Shown: positions 1,096 to 7,627 of the stretch, piece after piece | Layout of the letters: the number at the start of each line of letters is the position of its first letter | Numbering within the stretch: the stretch's first letter is position 1 | Source of the DNA: Streptomyces xanthii | GTDB lineage: Bacteria > Actinomycetota > Actinomycetes > Streptomycetales > Streptomycetaceae | Direction: 5' to 3' | NCBI RefSeq assembly: GCF_014621695.1 | Contig: NZ_CP061281.1 | Span: forward strand, 1,488,001 to 1,552,000 | Length of the DNA stretch: 64,000 nt | Notes under the pieces: generated by a model | Databases searched by the model: none | What the model saw: the letters and a program-made list of their open reading frames with translations, nothing else | What the model was told of the DNA's origin: nothing | Program-made: the position numbers and the translations under genes

Positions 1096-1557
1096 ATGGA
1101 AGCGGCGCTGATTGCCGTGCTGGGAACGCTGTTGGGGTCCGTGGTCACGCACTTCTTCCAGGGGCGGGCCACCGTGCGCAGCGCCGAACTGGCGCGGGCC
1201 GAGCAGATGCGGCAGGAGCGGATCTCCTGCTACAGCGCGTTCGCCGGAGAGCTGCACGACTACCGGCGGGCCCAGAACGACCGCTGGTACCGGGCCCACG
1301 AGGACGGCCCCGGCAGTACCGCCGACGCCTCCCGCTTCGCCTCCTACGAGGCCCGGATCGCCGCCCGCGCCGCGCTCACCCGCGTCCAGCTGGTCTGCGC
1401 GGACCCCGCACTGCGCGAACTGGCCGCGCGGGCCTTCCAGTTCACGCACTGCATGCACGAGGCGACCGACGAGGCCGACCGCGACCGCCGCTCCCGCGAG
1501 GCGAAGGCGGCCCTCGACACGTTCGTCACCCGCGCCGGACCGACCGTGCACCGGTGA
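1096..1557 (+). CDS. small membrane-anchored hypothetical protein (153 aa)
   Basis: Function unknown. Residues 1-21 form a hydrophobic stretch (MEAALIAVLGTLLGSVVTHFF) that looks like a single N-terminal membrane anchor. The remainder is a charged, Arg/Ala/Glu-rich helical region likely to form a cytosolic coiled coil. Codon use matches the surrounding genes. It sits 95 bp after the ketoacyl synthase and converges on the SWIM gene with only 14 bp between stops. The ATG at 1096 follows GAGGCG. Overlapping frames over the same DNA are shadows. The assignment rests on codon-position bias and the anchor, not on a recognised family. Confidence 0.6.
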   Translation: MEAALIAVLGTLLGSVVTHFFQGRATVRSAELARAEQMRQERISCYSAFAGELHDYRRAQNDRWYRAHEDGPGSTADASRFASYEARIAARAALTRVQLVCADPALRELAARAFQFTHCMHEATDEADRDRRSREAKAALDTFVTRAGPTVHR

Positions 1558-1571
1558 CCGGTGACCGGTGA

Positions 1572-2897
1572 TCAGGTGAGGCCGAGCAGCGAGTCGAGTG
1601 CCGCCACCGGGTCCGGGGACGGCTCGCCGCGGGGCCACCAGTCCTCGCGGCCGGGGTCGGACTCGTAGCCGTACCAGCGGCCGTCGCGGCCCAGGCGGAG
1701 CTGGAGGGACGGGGTCGACAGGCGGTTGCGGCGGGGGCGGAACTCGGGGTGGCCCGTGGCGAGGAGCGCGGGGCGGGCGCGGTCGAAAGGCCCGGCCGGC
1801 GGGTCCCACTCCTCCTCCAGGACGCCGAGGCCCGCGAACCCGCCCTGACGCCAGGCGGCGACCGCGCGGGCGAGGTCGCCGGGGGTGCGGCCGGTGCCGC
1901 GGGCCAGGGACGCGTACAGGGTGCGGGTCGCCGCGGTGAGGCCGGAGCCGGGGTGTGCGGCGGCGAGCCGGACCGCGTCCTGCCACGGCGTGAATCCGGC
2001 GAGCGGGTCGACGCCCGTCGTGAGCAGGGCGTGGGCGCGGGCCGCCGCCTCCGTGGCGAGGAGGTCGAGGGCGAGCGGGTCCGGGGCGCCGGGCGCCTGC
2101 GGGTAGGACGGCGGGCGCTCGGGGTGGGCGGGCGGCGGGAACTCCGGCGGCAGGGCGGGCAGTCGCGCCGCGTCCTGCGCGAACACGTCGCGGGCGGGGC
2201 GTGAGTCGAGGTCCGGCCCCGAGGCCTCCGCTTCCGACTCCTGCTGCTCGCGCGCCGTGTGCGTGGCGTGCCGCCGGGTCAGGTCGGCGAGCAGCTCCTG
2301 CTCGCCGCGTCCGCGCAGCAGGAAGAGGACGAACGGGTCCTCGTCGATGAGCCGCGCCGTCTGGTAGCAGAGCGCCGCCGCGTGCTTGCACGGGTGCGCG
2401 CGGTCCGGACAGGTGCACTCGGGGGTGAGGTCGTCGACGGCGGGCAGCAGGTCGGCGGTGGCGGCGAGCGCGTGCGGCACGTCCTTGTCGAGCAGGGACG
2501 CCATGTGGTCGGGGCGGGAGACCGCGGTGTCCAGGAAACGCTCCCAGGCCTCGTCCGGCAGGGTGCGCAGCCGCAGTTCGGCCCGGTAGGGGCGGGGGCG
2601 CGAGCCGTGCACGTACGCGACGACGCGGCCGGGCGTGACGGTGATCGCGTCGACGTGACCCCGATCGGCGTAGGCGCGACCGCGGGCGAGGCGGGCCGGG
2701 TCGAGGGCCGTGTCCTCCAGGGCGTCCACCCACGCGTTGCCCCACCAGGTGAGCGCGAAGGCGGTGCTCGGCCGGGCGCGGGGCGGCAGCGGCGGGAAGG
2801 TGCGGCGGGTGTCGGTGTGCCGGGCCTGCGCCTGCTCACCGGCTCGGGCGCGGCCGGGGACGTGCGCGGCGGGGCGCCGGGCGCGGGCGGGGCTCAT
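1572..2897 (-). CDS. SWIM zinc-finger protein paired with SNF2 helicase (441 aa)
   Basis: SWIM zinc-finger protein; SWIM domains bind DNA or protein partners and in bacteria are commonly encoded next to SNF2-type helicases. The CxCx(n)CxH signature is seen at about residues 161-174 as CTCPDRAHPCKH. The N-terminal 40 residues are basic and look disordered. A region starting WWGNAWVDALE precedes the finger and is typical of these actinobacterial partners. The start ATG (2895-2897) overlaps the TGA of the 54-residue repeat ORF upstream (ATGA), so translation is probably coupled. It is the last gene of a helicase / small peptide / SWIM operon. The exact substrate is unknown. Confidence 0.88.
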   Translation of the reverse strand: MSPARARRPAAHVPGRARAGEQAQARHTDTRRTFPPLPPRARPSTAFALTWWGNAWVDALEDTALDPARLARGRAYADRGHVDAITVTPGRVVAYVHGSRPRPYRAELRLRTLPDEAWERFLDTAVSRPDHMASLLDKDVPHALAATADLLPAVDDLTPECTCPDRAHPCKHAAALCYQTARLIDEDPFVLFLLRGRGEQELLADLTRRHATHTAREQQESEAEASGPDLDSRPARDVFAQDAARLPALPPEFPPPAHPERPPSYPQAPGAPDPLALDLLATEAAARAHALLTTGVDPLAGFTPWQDAVRLAAAHPGSGLTAATRTLYASLARGTGRTPGDLARAVAAWRQGGFAGLGVLEEEWDPPAGPFDRARPALLATGHPEFRPRRNRLSTPSLQLRLGRDGRWYGYESDPGREDWWPRGEPSPDPVAALDSLLGLT

Positions 2898-3058
2898 GAG
2901 GGGGCACTTCCCTTCGCGCTCAAGGCTGTTGGCTTCCCGTGCGCTTCCCTGACGGTTCGGTTCCGGTGCGCGCTCATGACGGTGCGGCTCTCCCGCGCGC
3001 CCACGTCGGCTCCCTTCTTGTGCGCGCCCATGGCCGTGCGCTTCGCCCGCGCCCTCAT
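2894..3058 (-). CDS. 54-residue basic peptide made of six 9-residue repeats
   Basis: An ORF of exactly 54 codons fills the gap between the helicase and SWIM genes. Its ATG (3056-3058) overlaps the helicase TGA, and its own TGA (2894-2896) overlaps the SWIM ATG, so both junctions read ATGA. The peptide divides into six nonamers with no remainder: MRARAKRTA, MGAHKKGAD, VGARESRTV, MSAHRNRTV, REAHGKPTA, LSAKGSAPS. A loose consensus is x-[GSE]-A-[HRK]-x-[KSN]-x-T-[AV]. The peptide is strongly basic, with no membrane segment. No family is recognised. Alternatively the DNA is a 27-bp tandem repeat that happens to stay open; the double start-stop overlap argues for real coupled translation. Confidence 0.5.
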   Translation of the reverse strand: MRARAKRTAMGAHKKGADVGARESRTVMSAHRNRTVREAHGKPTALSAKGSAPS

Positions 3059-3074
3059 GACGCGTCCCGGCGCA
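2913..3074. repeat. degenerate 27-bp tandem repeat, about six copies
   Basis: Units begin at 2913, 2940, 2967, 2994, 3021 and 3048. Shared cores include GTGCGCGCTCATGACGGTGC (2966-2985) and GTGCGCGCCCATGGCCGTGC (3020-3039), which differ at three positions. The repeat codes for the nonamer peptide on the minus strand and runs a few codons into the 3' end of the helicase gene. Confidence 0.75.
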
Positions 3075-5919
3075 GGGAGACCAGGTCGGTCAGCTCGCGG
3101 TCGGACAGCTCGGTGAGCGCGGCCTCGCCGGAGCCGAGCACGGCGTCGGCGAGGGCTCGCTTGCTCGCGAGGAGTTCGGCGATGCGGTCCTCGACGGTGC
3201 CCTCGGTGATGAGCCGGTGGACCTGGACGGGCTGGGTCTGTCCGATGCGGTAGGCGCGGTCGGTGGCCTGCTCCTCGACCGCCGGGTTCCACCAGCGGTC
3301 GAAGTGCACGACGTGGCCCGCGCGCGTGAGGTTGAGCCCGGTGCCCGCGGCCTTCAACGACAGCAGGAAGACGGGCACTTCACCGGCCTGGAACCGGTCG
3401 ACCATGCGCTCGCGCTCGGCGACGGGGGTGCCGCCGTGCAGCAGCTGGCAGGGGATCGCACGCGTGGCCAGGTGGGTGGCGAGCAGCTTGGCCATGGACA
3501 CGTACTGGGTGAAGACGAGGACGGAACCGCCCGAGCCGTCCTCGGCGACGATCGTGTCGAGGAGTTCGTCGAGCAGGGCGAGCTTTCCGGAGCGGCCGGC
3601 GAGCCGGGGCCTGCTGTCCTCGGCCTCCGCCTCCTTCAGGTACTGCGCCGGGTGGTTGCAGATCTGCTTGAGGGAGGTGAGCAGCTTCATGACGAGGCCG
3701 CGGCGGCCGATGCCCTCGGCGGCCTCGATCTGCGCCATGGACTCGCGGACCACGGCCTCGTACAGCGAGGCCTGTTCGCGGGTGAGCGGGGCCGGGTGGT
3801 CGGACTCGGTCTTGGGCGGCAGCTCGGGGACGATGCCGGGGTCGGACTTCTTGCGGCGCAGGATGAACGGGCGGACGAGCCGGGCCAGCCGCTCGATCGC
3901 CTCCGGGTCCGTGCCGCCGTGCCCCTGGAGCGGGACCTCGCCCTCGACCACGCGCGCGTGCCGGGCACGGAACGCCTTGAGCGGGCCGAGCAGTCCGGGG
4001 GTCGTCCAGTCGAGCAGGGCCCACAGCTCCGACAGGTTGTTCTCCACCGGGGTGCCGGTGAGGGCCACGCGCGCGGGGGCGTCGATGGTGCGCAGCGCCT
4101 TCGCGGTCGCCGAATGCGGGTTCTTGACGTGCTGGGCCTCGTCGGCGACGACCATGCCCCAGGTGTGCGCCGCGAGTTCGGCCGCGCGGGTGCGGACGGT
4201 GCCGTACGTGGTGAGGACGAAGCCGCTGGAGTCGAGCGTGCGGGCGCTGCTGTGGAAGCGGGTCACGGGGACGCCGGGGGCGAACTTCTCGATCTCGCGC
4301 TGCCAGTTGCCGAGCAGGGAGGCGGGGCAGACGACGAGGGTGGGGTGCGGGCGGGCGCGGCGCAGGTGGAGGGCGATGAGGGTGACGGTCTTGCCGAGGC
4401 CCATGTCGTCGGCGAGGCAGCCGCCGAGGCCCAGCGAGGTCATGAGGTCGAGCCAGGCGAGGCCTCGCAGCTGGTAGTCGCGCAGGGTGGCGGCGAGGCC
4501 CGGGGGCGGCTCGACGGTGTCGAGGCCGCGGGTGAGGCGGTCGCGCAGCTCGGCGAGGCGACCGGTCGGCACGGCGGGGACGCGCTCGCCGTCGACCTCG
4601 GCCTCGCCGGTGAGCGCGACGGCCAGTGCGTCGACGGGCTGGAGCAGGCCCAGCTCGCGCTTGCGGGCCTTGCGCACGAGGTCGGGGTCGACGACGACCC
4701 ACTGGTCGCGCAGCCGGACCACCGCGCGGTGTGACTCGGCGAGCCGGTCCATCTCCCGCTCGGTGAGCGGGTCGCCGTCGAGCGCCAGCTGCCAGTTGAA
4801 CGCGAGCAGTTCGTCGCTGTCGAAGAACGGGGTGCCGTCGGTCGCCGAGCCCGGCGCGGCCTGGGCCCGTACGACGGCGGTGGCGGTGAGGGAGCGGGCC
4901 AGCTCGCGCGGCCAGTGGACGGCGACCCCGGCCTTCGCGAGGCGTGCGGCGCCCGGCCCGAGGAGGTCGATCAGCTCGCTCTCGCTCAGGGCGAGGACGT
5001 CGGGCACGTCCTGCTCCAGGAGGCGGCCGAGCGGCGGCCAGGCGGCGACGGCACGGCGCACGGCGAGCACGGCGTCGATCCGGGCGCGCGGTCCGAAGTG
5101 CTCGTCGGCGTCCCCGGCCCACAGGGCGGCGGCGTCGACGACGCGCGTGGGATCGGCGAGGCTGTGGACCTGGACGACGGCGGCTCCGGCGCGCCGCTCC
5201 CCCGCCTCCTCGGGCGCGGCGTCCTCCTCGGCCGCGTCGAAGAGGGCGTGCTGCGCGAGGTCGAGCCGGAGCGAGACCTTCACCCCCGCGTCGAGCCCGG
5301 CGGCCGCCTCGACGGCCCAGGGGCGCGCGTGCGGGAGGTACTGGGCGGCGGCCGCGGCGAACGGCGCGCCGGCCGCGTGCGCCGCGGCCGGGGTGCGGGG
5401 CAGCGTGTCGGCTACGGCGTCGAGGAACGCGCGTACGAGGGCCTGGGGCTCCGGCAGCCGCAGCGGGCGGCGGCCCGGGAGCGGGGTCGCGTACCCCTCG
5501 GGCGGCAGGGCCGCGGCGATGCCCCGGATCTGCGCGACGTCGTCCTCGTCGAGCGGGCCCGCGCGCCAGGCGTCGTGGTCGGAGGCGGTGAGTCCGGGCA
5601 GCATCCGGCCGCGGGCGACCAGGTGCAGGGCGTGCGCGGCGGCGGCGCCCCAGGCGGCGGTGGCGGGGTGGGCGGCACGGGTGCGGCGGGCGCGCAGGAG
5701 CAGCGGCAGCGCGTCGGCAACGGACAGCACGCGCGCGGGGACCTTGCGCGAGCGCACGCCGGTGCCGTGCGGCCGCACCACCGTGATCTCCGCGTCGGCG
5801 CCGGGCGGCCCGGCGCCGTCCGGGCACCAGAGGGCGATGCGGCCCTCGCGCGGCAGGGGCGCGGGCAGGAAGACGGCGGCGACCTCCGCGCCCACGGCCT
5901 GCGGCTCCGGCGGTGTCAC
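3055..5919 (-). CDS. SNF2/SWI2-family DEAD/DEAH helicase (954 aa)
   Basis: Double-stranded-DNA translocase of the bacterial SNF2 group (RapA/HepA-like architecture). The N-terminal half, about 450 residues, carries the SNF2-associated region found in bacterial members. Motif I is LADDMGLGKT near residue 505, motif II ADEAQ near 593 and motif III ALTGTPVENN soon after. Helicase domain 2 ends with DRAYRIGQ (motif VI), preceded by HFDRWWNPAVEEQATD. The GTG start at 5919 is preceded by AGGAGGAGGTG. It heads an operon with the 54-residue repeat peptide and the SWIM protein, which suggests a nucleic-acid remodelling complex. The biological role is not known. Confidence 0.93.
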   Translation of the reverse strand: MTPPEPQAVGAEVAAVFLPAPLPREGRIALWCPDGAGPPGADAEITVVRPHGTGVRSRKVPARVLSVADALPLLLRARRTRAAHPATAAWGAAAAHALHLVARGRMLPGLTASDHDAWRAGPLDEDDVAQIRGIAAALPPEGYATPLPGRRPLRLPEPQALVRAFLDAVADTLPRTPAAAHAAGAPFAAAAAQYLPHARPWAVEAAAGLDAGVKVSLRLDLAQHALFDAAEEDAAPEEAGERRAGAAVVQVHSLADPTRVVDAAALWAGDADEHFGPRARIDAVLAVRRAVAAWPPLGRLLEQDVPDVLALSESELIDLLGPGAARLAKAGVAVHWPRELARSLTATAVVRAQAAPGSATDGTPFFDSDELLAFNWQLALDGDPLTEREMDRLAESHRAVVRLRDQWVVVDPDLVRKARKRELGLLQPVDALAVALTGEAEVDGERVPAVPTGRLAELRDRLTRGLDTVEPPPGLAATLRDYQLRGLAWLDLMTSLGLGGCLADDMGLGKTVTLIALHLRRARPHPTLVVCPASLLGNWQREIEKFAPGVPVTRFHSSARTLDSSGFVLTTYGTVRTRAAELAAHTWGMVVADEAQHVKNPHSATAKALRTIDAPARVALTGTPVENNLSELWALLDWTTPGLLGPLKAFRARHARVVEGEVPLQGHGGTDPEAIERLARLVRPFILRRKKSDPGIVPELPPKTESDHPAPLTREQASLYEAVVRESMAQIEAAEGIGRRGLVMKLLTSLKQICNHPAQYLKEAEAEDSRPRLAGRSGKLALLDELLDTIVAEDGSGGSVLVFTQYVSMAKLLATHLATRAIPCQLLHGGTPVAERERMVDRFQAGEVPVFLLSLKAAGTGLNLTRAGHVVHFDRWWNPAVEEQATDRAYRIGQTQPVQVHRLITEGTVEDRIAELLASKRALADAVLGSGEAALTELSDRELTDLVSLRRDAS

Positions 5920-6028
5920 GCCACGTCACCTCCTCCTGGTCACTGCTCACTGCTCACGTCCGGTCCGCGTCCCGTGCGGCCCGGTCTCCACGACCCGTAC
6001 GACCTTACGGGCCGGGTCTGACAATCAC

Positions 6029-6066
6029 GGTCCGCGCTCCCCGGTCCGCGCCGGGGAGCACGGACC
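6029..6066. repeat. inverted repeat between divergent helicase and phosphatase genes
   Basis: The arms GGTCCGCGCTCCCCGG (6029-6044) and CCGGGGAGCACGGACC (6051-6066) pair with one mismatch around a 6-nt loop. It lies in the 197-bp divergent region between the helicase and phosphatase starts, about 50 bp before the phosphatase TTG. It may act in the leader of the phosphatase transcript or as a protein site. Confidence 0.6.
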
Positions 6067-6116
6067 GGGGAGAATGGCCCCGGACCTGCACGAGACCTCA
6101 TGAACAGGCGTGAACC

Positions 6117-6710
6117 TTGGGTGATCTGCTCCTCGTCCGGCACGGCGAGACCGAATGGGCGCTGAACGGACGGCACACGAGCTGGACGGACATCCCGCTC
6201 ACGGAGAACGGCAGGGAGCAGGCGCGCCGGGTCGCGCCGCTCGTCGGCAGCTACCACGTGGGGGCGGTGTTCACGAGCCCCATGCGGCGCGCCCGGGACA
6301 CCGCGAAGCTCGCGGGCCTGGACCAGGCCGTGGTGGACCCGGACCTGTGCGAGTGGGACTACGGCGGTTACGAGGGCGTGACGACGCTGGAGATCCATCG
6401 CACCCGGCCCGGCTGGTTCCTGTTCGACGACGGGGTGGCGCCGGGTCCGCCGGAGCATCCGGGCGAGACGCCGGAGCAGGTGGGGGCGCGTGCGGACCGG
6501 ATGCTGTCGAAGGTGGACGCGGCGCTCGCGAACAACGAGGGCAGCGTCGTGCTCGTCGCGCACGGCCATTTCCTGCGGGTGCTGACCGCGCGGCGCCTCG
6601 GCCTGTCGGCGTCCGAGGGCGCGCACTTCCTGCTGGCGACCGGCACCGTGAGCCGGATCAGCACGGAGCACGGCCGTCCGGTGATCGCGGGCTGGAACCT
6701 GCGGCCCTGA
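6117..6710 (+). CDS. histidine phosphatase family protein (197 aa)
   Basis: Cytosolic phosphatase of the phosphoglycerate-mutase-like branch. The catalytic RHGE motif is at residues 8-11 (LLLVRHGETEWALNGRHT). The second His lies in VLVAHGHFLRVLTARRLG, and the conserved SPMRRARDTA follows the first strand. The acidic catalytic residue is likely in LCEWDYGGYEG. The start is set by sequence: an in-frame TGA at 6111-6113 lies just upstream, making TTG 6117 the first usable start and the one that preserves the first beta strand. The substrate is unknown; the family includes GpmB-like and sugar-phosphate phosphatases. It is a single gene. Confidence 0.88.
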   Translation: MGDLLLVRHGETEWALNGRHTSWTDIPLTENGREQARRVAPLVGSYHVGAVFTSPMRRARDTAKLAGLDQAVVDPDLCEWDYGGYEGVTTLEIHRTRPGWFLFDDGVAPGPPEHPGETPEQVGARADRMLSKVDAALANNEGSVVLVAHGHFLRVLTARRLGLSASEGAHFLLATGTVSRISTEHGRPVIAGWNLRP

Positions 6711-6723
6711 CCCCGAGCCCGAC

Positions 6724-6975
6724 GGCCCCGGCAGCATGGTCGGCACTGTCGGCGTGGCCGACCGTGTCGGCCTGATCGGCCCTGGCGGCATCACCCGCCC
6801 CGTCGGCATCACCGGCCGCGTCGGCGTGATCGGCTCCGCCGGCGTGATGGGCACGGTCAGCGCGGCCGGCCCCGTCGGCGTGATCGGCCCCGTCGGCGTG
6901 GCCGGCTCTGCCGACGTGATCGGCGCTGTCCGCGTGATCCGCCTGATCCTCGTGATCCGCGTTGTCAGTGCTCCC
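6724..6975. repeat. 18-bp minisatellite, about 14 imperfect tandem units
   Basis: The 293-bp gap between the phosphatase and the next gene is almost wholly an 18-bp repeat with consensus GGCCCCGTCGGCGTGATC. Good copies start at 6868 and 6886. All six frames stay open because the unit length is a multiple of three; the plus frame would read a Gly-Pro-Val-Gly-Val-Ile repeat and one minus frame His-Ala-Asp-Gly-Ala-Asp. I see no start site or codon-position bias that would make it a gene. Confidence 0.8.
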
Positions 6976-7003
6976 GTGCACCATCGTGGTCAGGAGGTGT
7001 GCC

Positions 7004-7627
7004 ATGACCAGACCGCCGACCGCCGCGCAGCGGCGGATCATCGACGCGGCCGATCCGGAGACGGGCCGGATCACGGGGAGCGAGACCCAGCTGGCGCGGC
7101 TCGTCGTGCTGAAGCTGGCGTTCCGGCATCCCCGGCCGCCGCACGCCCACTTCCTGACCCCGGAGGGCCACCGGCTGCGGGAGGCGGGCCCGGAGCTGCC
7201 GCCGCCGCCCGAGCCGGAGGCTCAGCGGGACGGGCGGTTCCGGGCGCGGCTGGGCGGCGAGCCGGACGCCGTGGCCTCGCCCGCGCGGGCCCGCGAGGTC
7301 CGCACGGCCTGGCAGGGACTGCTCGAGATACGCCGGATGACGAATCCGGACGGGGCGCTCGACCGGCCCTGCGCCTGGGAGCGCGGCCGGCTCGAGCACG
7401 CGGCGGCCCTCGCCCTGGAGGCGGCGGGCCGGGAGCCGGCGAGCACCGCGGCGCCGGGTTACCGGGTGACGTCGACGCCGCAGCCCGAGGCGGTGTCGGT
7501 GCACCATCCGGACGCGGCGGGCCTCGCGGCCTGCGCGGCGACGCTGACCGAGGCCGGCTGGCAGGTCAGCGAGCACGCCGGGAAGCGGGGCGAGCGCTGG
7601 CTGCTCGCCTCGCCCAGACGCACGTAG
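7004..7627 (+). CDS. hypothetical protein (207 aa)
   Basis: I do not recognise a family. The ATG at 7004 follows a near-perfect ribosome site, AGGAGGT (6992-6998), which makes the longer upstream extension into the minisatellite unlikely. The N-terminus MTRPPTAAQRRIIDAADPETGRI resembles the short helical start seen in several actinobacterial proteins of unknown role. A central Pro/Glu-rich linker (LPPPPEPEAQ) follows. The C-terminal third is a compact alpha/beta unit (YRVTSTPQPEAVSVHHPDA ... LTEAGWQVSEHAGKRGERWLLASP). No signal peptide or membrane segment is seen, so it is likely cytosolic. Confidence 0.7.
   Translation: MTRPPTAAQRRIIDAADPETGRITGSETQLARLVVLKLAFRHPRPPHAHFLTPEGHRLREAGPELPPPPEPEAQRDGRFRARLGGEPDAVASPARAREVRTAWQGLLEIRRMTNPDGALDRPCAWERGRLEHAAALALEAAGREPASTAAPGYRVTSTPQPEAVSVHHPDAAGLAACAATLTEAGWQVSEHAGKRGERWLLASPRRT

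What the first reader, a model, noticed from the sequence alone, without database searches (positions are those of the whole stretch)
2894..3058. A 54-residue peptide of six perfect 9-residue periods, locked by ATGA overlaps between a SNF2 helicase and its SWIM partner
The gap between the helicase and SWIM genes is exactly an ORF of 54 codons. Its ATG overlaps the helicase stop and its stop overlaps the SWIM start. The peptide is six nonamers with an A-[HRK]-x-x-x-T pattern and is highly basic. A 27-bp repeat that keeps frame, ends on both borders and couples three genes is unlikely to be chance. It could be a nucleic-acid-binding or scaffold subunit of a helicase-SWIM complex, or a repeat that tunes SWIM translation.
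Basis: partly seen in the sequence, partly recalled or inferred. Interest (0 to 1): 0.75.

Follow-up and report, generated by a model that had tools for sequence, protein, structure and literature searches.

The report
Repeat insert bridging two coupled genes
A short DNA repeat has slipped in between two overlapping Streptomyces genes in a way that probably keeps ribosomes passing from one gene to the next; the small peptide it encodes looks like a by-product, not a conserved protein.

Summary
The ORF is real: minus strand 3058-2894, 54 codons, ATGA overlap at each end, six imperfect ~27-bp units (60% identity at period 27). The last unit is 26 bases to the SWIM start, so the insert is 161 bp. 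A word-based search of 5.8 billion proteins found no homologue; the array appears once in its genome and in none of 391 other Streptomyces sampled. Of 216 other distinct helicase-SWIM junctions, 205 pass directly from helicase stop into a long ORF through ATGA/GTGA (140 confirmed as SWIM), 3 use TGATG, and 8 carry other mini-ORFs (6-23 codons). All 11 mini-ORFs, own included, have DTGA at both ends and inserts of 2 modulo 3, the class that recreates the double lock; one unverified junction (L080) may be an exception. Most show a repeated Shine-Dalgarno-ATGA motif. Best reading: tandem duplication at a translationally coupled junction, surviving because the bridging ORF relays ribosomes from helicase to SWIM, as proposed for mycobacterial MIRUs. 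A conserved scaffold or DNA-binding peptide is not supported. A one-base change or sequencing error splitting off a repeat-extended SWIM N-terminus remains possible. Translation and coupling are untested.

The parts
3055..5919 (-). SNF2-family helicase (DUF3670 + SNF2 + Helicase_C; SCO1167/SCO6262 family), upstream gene
   Evidence: Pfam; NCBIfam NF058637, 1500 bits, cut-off 1200
3055..3058 (-). ATGA overlap: helicase stop / 54-codon ORF start
   Evidence: sequence; resembles the internal unit boundaries: rank 48 of 127,946 positions, 6 of 229 ATGA-centred
2894..3058 (-). 54-codon bridging ORF made of six ~27-bp tandem units (units begin at 3058, 3031, 3004, 2977, 2950, 2923)
   Evidence: no homologue found; single copy in the genome and not in 391 other sampled Streptomyces
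2898..2923 (-). last unit, 26 bases to the SWIM ATG (one short), which puts SWIM in a different frame from the array
   Evidence: sequence; boundary register
2894..2897 (-). ATGA overlap: ORF stop / SWIM start
   Evidence: sequence; resembles the internal unit boundaries: rank 41 of 127,946, 5 of 229 ATGA-centred
1572..2897 (-). SWIM zinc-finger protein, downstream gene; its start is the conserved one
   Evidence: PF04434; N-terminus matches close homologues such as P0001 and P0003 from Met1 and the direct junction of L003

Best explanation
A lineage-specific tandem-repeat insert sits exactly in the stop-start overlap of a translationally coupled gene pair. Shown: most relatives overlap directly; here 161 bp of ~27-bp units separate the two genes, each unit boundary resembles the junction itself, and the insert forms one open frame with a stop-start overlap at each end. 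Inferred: ribosomes that finish the helicase restart at the first ATGA, translate the 54 codons, stop at the second ATGA and restart on SWIM, so coupling survives a gap that would otherwise weaken or abolish it. The peptide is a by-product; what selection keeps is length (2 modulo 3) and openness.
For: 217 distinct junctions, own included: 205 direct, 3 TGATG, 9 with mini-ORFs; 11 of 11 mini-ORFs have DTGA at both ends; inserts of 17, 23 (seven times), 53, 68 and 161 bp, all 2 modulo 3. Several relatives show a repeated GGAGG-5-ATGA motif at 17 or 23 bp, in L159 and L166 making two mini-ORFs in a row. 7 state changes for 8 mini-ORF loci on a tree of 140 loci, so events recur. In 392 genomes GGAGG-5-ATGA repeated within 45 bp occurs 52 times against 5 for the reversed pattern; ATG-to-ATG spacings fall 27/4/21 in classes 0/1/2 modulo 3. 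Both outer borders of the window's array, left out of the model, resemble its internal boundaries. In E. coli and Haloferax, gaps of 20-38 nt strongly reduce or abolish termination-reinitiation (PMC10666635, abstract and passages). A J Bacteriol review suggests that MIRU ORFs work this way (PMC12548453, passage).
Against: No expression data. Shine-Dalgarno pairing is weak at both borders here (-4.0 and -4.6 kcal/mol) against -8.8 to -10.6 before the displaced SWIM starts of seven of the eight mini-ORF relatives (L212 not computed); it is also weak (-1.9) at the first start of L159 and L166. The unit does not resemble the SWIM start codons beyond the boundary (9 of 23 matches, chance about 8), so descent from the junction is not proven. 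Only 140 of 205 direct cases were confirmed by the SWIM motif in frame; in 3 the motif lies only in another frame (L026 and L205 in the 2 modulo 3 frame, L080 in the 1 modulo 3 frame, a possible counter-example) and 62 could not be checked. The array is seen in one genome. PMC10666635 itself cites synthetic-operon studies that found coupling over 73 nt and over 150-850 nt (passage), so a bridge may not be needed.
Confidence: 0.62

Rival explanations
1. The array is (or recently was) an in-frame N-terminal extension of SWIM made by 27-bp duplications; a one-base loss in the last unit, real or a sequencing error, splits it off as an apparent separate ORF.
For: The last unit is 26 bases to the ATG. 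27 is a multiple of 3, and in-frame duplications of this start occur in relatives: 12 bp in L020, L027, L039, L102, 24 bp in G145. SWIM N-terminal tails vary widely in length. G or C at third positions falls from 34 of 36 codons in units 1-4 to 12 of 18 in units 5-6 (counted by hand).
Against: None of the 120 SWIM proteins listed (of 1585 found) has a comparable tail: the longest has 63 residues before the WWG motif, against about 103 if fused here (49 own residues + 54). The conserved SWIM start is intact at 2897 with its own ATGA.
Confidence: 0.2
2. Neutral repeat insertion: SWIM is started independently (from its own ribosome site, or from a promoter inside the insert, as reported for the senX3-regX3 MIRU region), the double lock is luck, and nothing is relayed.
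For: For one insert alone the chance of the double lock is about 0.2 (1 in 3 for length times 0.64 for openness). Weak Shine-Dalgarno at the borders. MIRU-region promoter activity: PMC4213456 (passages).
Against: All 11 detected mini-ORFs at this junction in 9 loci obey the rule. No sigma-70-type promoter-like or terminator-like site in 2700-3200 by consensus scan, which does not cover other promoter types.
Confidence: 0.12
3. A functional basic peptide that binds nucleic acid or joins helicase and SWIM.
For: Basic (pI about 12, charge about +10). Its frame has the highest GC at third position (0.61/0.65/0.85).
Against: No homologue found, not elsewhere, relatives lack it. No coding-type constraint between units. 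Single-sequence AlphaFold gives one helix, mean pLDDT 75 but pTM 0.39, uninformative. Pfam's only hit is far below its cut-off.
Confidence: 0.05

Closest known systems
MIRU (mycobacterial interspersed repetitive units), e.g. senX3-regX3
   Same: Repeat inserted at a start codon, its own ORF coupled to the next gene with -4 nt spacing (PMC12548453 passage). MIRU lengths of 77 and 53 bp at senX3-regX3 (PMC4213456 passage) are also 2 modulo 3.
   Different: Here 27-bp units within one ORF, no significant second copy in the genome, no sign of mobility, different genus. Sequence homology to MIRU was not tested.
Termination-reinitiation coupling at ATGA gene overlaps
   Same: The ATGA overlaps and the usual arrangement of this gene pair (PMC6728339 and PMC10666635; abstracts and passages).
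   Different: Two overlaps in series with a repeat ORF between them.
Short leader ORF that delivers a ribosome to the next gene ('bicistronic design')
   Same: Architecture: short ORF whose end is coupled to the downstream start (mentioned in PMC12548453).
   Different: Natural, made of repeats, and with a weak Shine-Dalgarno ahead of the downstream start.
Coding minisatellite / VNTR
   Same: Tandem array whose period is a multiple of three.
   Different: Copy-number change between strains of this species could not be examined, since one genome per species is held.

Membership tests
MIRU | Sits in a DTGA stop-start overlap and carries an ORF overlapping both neighbours | tested here: met
MIRU | 77- or 53-bp unit | tested here: not met
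   27-bp period; MIRU lengths from PMC4213456
MIRU | Dispersed copies in the genome | tested here: not met
   own-genome search: itself at E 8e-29, next five at E 0.07 to 2.1; one DNA match in the own genome
MIRU | Sequence homology to mycobacterial MIRU | not tested
   no Mycobacterium sequence was compared
Termination-reinitiation relay | DTGA overlap at both ends with an open frame between | tested here: met
Termination-reinitiation relay | Shine-Dalgarno ahead of each restart | tested here: inconclusive
   -4.0 and -4.6 kcal/mol here; -8.8 to -10.6 before the displaced SWIM starts of seven relatives
Termination-reinitiation relay | SWIM translation depends on upstream translation | not testable with these tools
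   needs reporters or ribosome profiling
Coding minisatellite / VNTR | Tandem period above chance | tested here: met
   0 of 5000 codon shuffles reached it
Coding minisatellite / VNTR | Copy number varies between strains | not testable with these tools
   one genome per species held
Conserved small protein | Homologues with a conserved sequence | tested here: not met
   none found

The most novel reading that the evidence does not exclude
The helicase-SWIM junction in Streptomyces is a recurrent evolutionary hot spot where tandem copies of the Shine-Dalgarno-ATGA start site create chains of tiny relay ORFs; their number or length tunes the helicase:SWIM ratio, and the window's 54-codon array is an extreme, in-frame-grown form of such a relay.
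Probability: 0.22. Interest if true: 0.6.

Novelty: new variant of a known kind. Interest (0 to 1): 0.36.

Why it matters
It suggests a simple rule, that inserts in ATGA junctions survive when 2 modulo 3 long and open, which would fit the MIRU lengths and explain lineage-specific small ORFs without invoking peptide function. It warns against annotating such ORFs as proteins. If the relays tune downstream translation, Streptomyces holds a natural series (0, 1, 2 mini-ORFs) on which to measure the loss per termination-reinitiation step.

Tried and rejected
Peptide homologues: none found (a search limited to proteins sharing short words). Second copies in the genome: only weak hits, E 0.07 to 2.1. 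Plasmid tblastn: one match, E 8, chance. RNA structure: z +0.62, none. Rfam, window 1500-7500: none at gathering score. Promoter/terminator consensus, 2700-3200: none. Descent of the unit from the SWIM coding start: suggested by eye (MSPARARRP / MSAHRNRTV) but not borne out by counts against 205 direct relatives (mean 7.96 of 23, shuffled 8.08) and own SWIM (9 of 23); only the boundary context is shared. Whole-unit model: own SWIM start ranked 13,978 of 127,946 and helicase end 59,260, no resemblance. Loose ATGA pattern in the own genome: 89 matches, reversed control 31, too unspecific to use; the strict pattern has no match in the own genome. AlphaFold on one sequence: single helix, pTM 0.39, not informative; no fold search made. 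PADLOC hits of the helicase are to SNF2-type helicases (DpdE, ZorD and others) and were not taken as a defence function. Paper searches, 7 of 10 used: no listed title or abstract opening described Streptomyces junction relays, but most subscription papers are not held; Supply 1997 (MIRU) was seen only as a reference.

Full report
What is there. On the minus strand a SNF2-family helicase (5919-3055) is followed by a SWIM zinc-finger gene (2897-1572). Between them lies a 54-codon ORF, 3058-2894, whose ATG overlaps the helicase TGA and whose TGA overlaps the SWIM ATG. It is built of six units: MRARAKRTA, MGAHKKGAD, VGARESRTV, MSAHRNRTV, REAHGKPTA, LSAKGSAPS. Period-27 identity is 0.60; 0 of 5000 codon shuffles reached that at any period from 12 to 40. 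The units are not perfect copies, and the last is 26 bases to the SWIM ATG, so the insert is 161 bp.

How surprising are the locks? Less than they look. In this GC-rich DNA 64% of resampled sequences keep 53 codons open. If an insert lands behind an ATGA and the downstream ATGA stays, both ends lock whenever the length is 2 modulo 3 and the frame is open. The two locks and the exact fit are therefore one condition, not three coincidences.

The array is private to this genome as far as sampled. No protein shares three 5-residue words with the peptide in 5.8 billion sequences. In the own genome the next best hit has E 0.07. A DNA search of 392 Streptomyces genomes, drawn from a larger group, found the full array only in the own genome; 38 others had short matches covering at most 62 bases of the query. 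Of the 1585 SWIM proteins found, 120 were listed and none of these has a comparable N-terminal tail.

Relatives show the usual state. 240 loci gave 217 distinct junctions, own included. 205 run from the helicase stop directly into a long ORF through an ATGA or GTGA overlap. Three use a CTGATG overlap (L170, L232, L256). Nine carry mini-ORFs. Of the 205, the SWIM WWG motif was confirmed in the same frame for 140; in 3 it lies only in another frame (L026 and L205 at 2 modulo 3, L080 at 1 modulo 3); 62 could not be tested because no motif was found in the fetched part. Those 65 are the weak spot of the census, and L080 is a possible counter-example to the rule below.

The mini-ORFs recur and obey one rule. 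L002: 18 codons. L043, L068, L213: 8. L083: 6. L159 and L166: two of 8 each. L212: 23. Own: 54. All 11 have DTGA at both ends, and all inserts are 2 modulo 3. In L043, L068, L083, L159, L166 and L213 the likely cause can be seen: GGAGG-5-ATGA, or a close variant, is repeated at 17 or 23 bp. L068, L166 and L159 are near neighbours on the tree with 1, 2 and 2 mini-ORFs, while their neighbour L059 has none. A Fitch count on 140 loci gives 7 changes for 8 mini-ORF loci (L213 not in the tree). If seven or eight events are independent, and 1 and 2 modulo 3 were equally likely, all being 2 modulo 3 has a chance of about 0.004-0.008 (my arithmetic, subject to the 65 unverified junctions). In-frame duplications (12 bp in L020, L027, L039, L102; 24 bp in G145) also occur and simply lengthen the downstream frame.

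It is not confined to this locus. In 392 genomes GGAGG-5-ATGA repeated within 45 bp was found 52 times, in 45 genomes, against 5 for the reversed pattern; the own genome has none. Spacings are 27/4/21 for 0/1/2 modulo 3; 19 of the 21 in class 2 stop exactly at the second ATGA. The class 0 count is inflated by one recurrent sequence (MTAREVAM, 12 of 27), which in the loci held has only short frames on both sides and is probably not a gene junction. Five of the 52 lie at the helicase-SWIM junction: G026, G071, G145, G160 by tblastn and G133 by coordinates; four of the five are in class 2.

Is the window's array a copy of the junction? Partly supported. A model of the five internal boundaries, with the two outer borders left out, ranks those borders 48th and 41st of 127,946 positions, and 6th and 5th of 229 ATGA-centred ones. 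But a model of whole units finds no resemblance to either flank, and codons 2-9 of SWIM, own or relatives', do not resemble the unit above chance. I therefore claim shared boundary context, not proven descent.

Coding signal. GC by codon position is 0.61/0.65/0.85 in the ORF frame, against 0.80/0.60/0.96 for all of SWIM; unit-to-unit identity is 0.72/0.58/0.64, so third positions are not freer to vary. DNA-level duplication would give this; it neither proves nor excludes translation. Shine-Dalgarno pairing is weak at both own borders, and strong before the displaced SWIM start in seven of eight mini-ORF relatives (L212 not computed).

Mechanism. In E. coli and Haloferax, gaps of 20-38 nt strongly reduce or abolish termination-reinitiation (PMC10666635, abstract and passages), and overlapping pairs were strictly coupled in 13 of 14 tests (PMC6728339, abstract and passages). 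The first of these papers also cites synthetic-operon studies with coupling over much longer gaps. On its own data a 161-nt untranslated gap should uncouple SWIM, and an open frame with ATGA at both ends should not. A 2025 review describes MIRU ORFs in these terms (PMC12548453, passage). Whether Streptomyces ribosomes behave so at this locus is inferred, not shown.

Main rival. A one-base loss in the last unit, real or a sequencing error, could split off what would otherwise be a repeat-extended SWIM N-terminus. Resequencing decides this.

Verdict. A real, so far single-genome repeat insert in a coupled junction, most likely kept because it relays ribosomes; the peptide is probably incidental. 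It works like a MIRU ORF but fails two MIRU membership tests (unit length, dispersed copies). Interest is moderate, mainly for the recurrent relay phenomenon around it.

Noticed in passing
6723-6966: Second tandem array, 18/36-bp period (12.3 copies, 71% matches at period 18), in the gap between a histidine phosphatase gene and a gene starting near 7004 with a GGAGG site.
   Followed up: no
L316 (G262:C106): A perfect 16-bp unit carrying GGAGG and ATGA is repeated head to tail near another gene start; single steps are 1 modulo 3, so only some copies share a frame.
   Followed up: partly
L026, L080, L205: Junctions where the SWIM motif lies in a different frame from the ORF that overlaps the helicase stop (L026 and L080); possible inserts, frameshifts or draft errors.
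   Followed up: no
many relatives, e.g. L049, L054, L075, L233: In a large group of Streptomyces the gene after the helicase has a long N-terminal part often starting M..ADEARRALREARE; where the WWG motif was reached it lies far downstream.
   Followed up: no
L212 (G167): The SWIM frame appears broken by a short internal duplication around DEDPFVLLLMRGRG.
   Followed up: no
5940-6130: The gap between the helicase and its divergent neighbour holds short repeats (CACTGCT and GGTCCGCG types), seen by eye.
   Followed up: no
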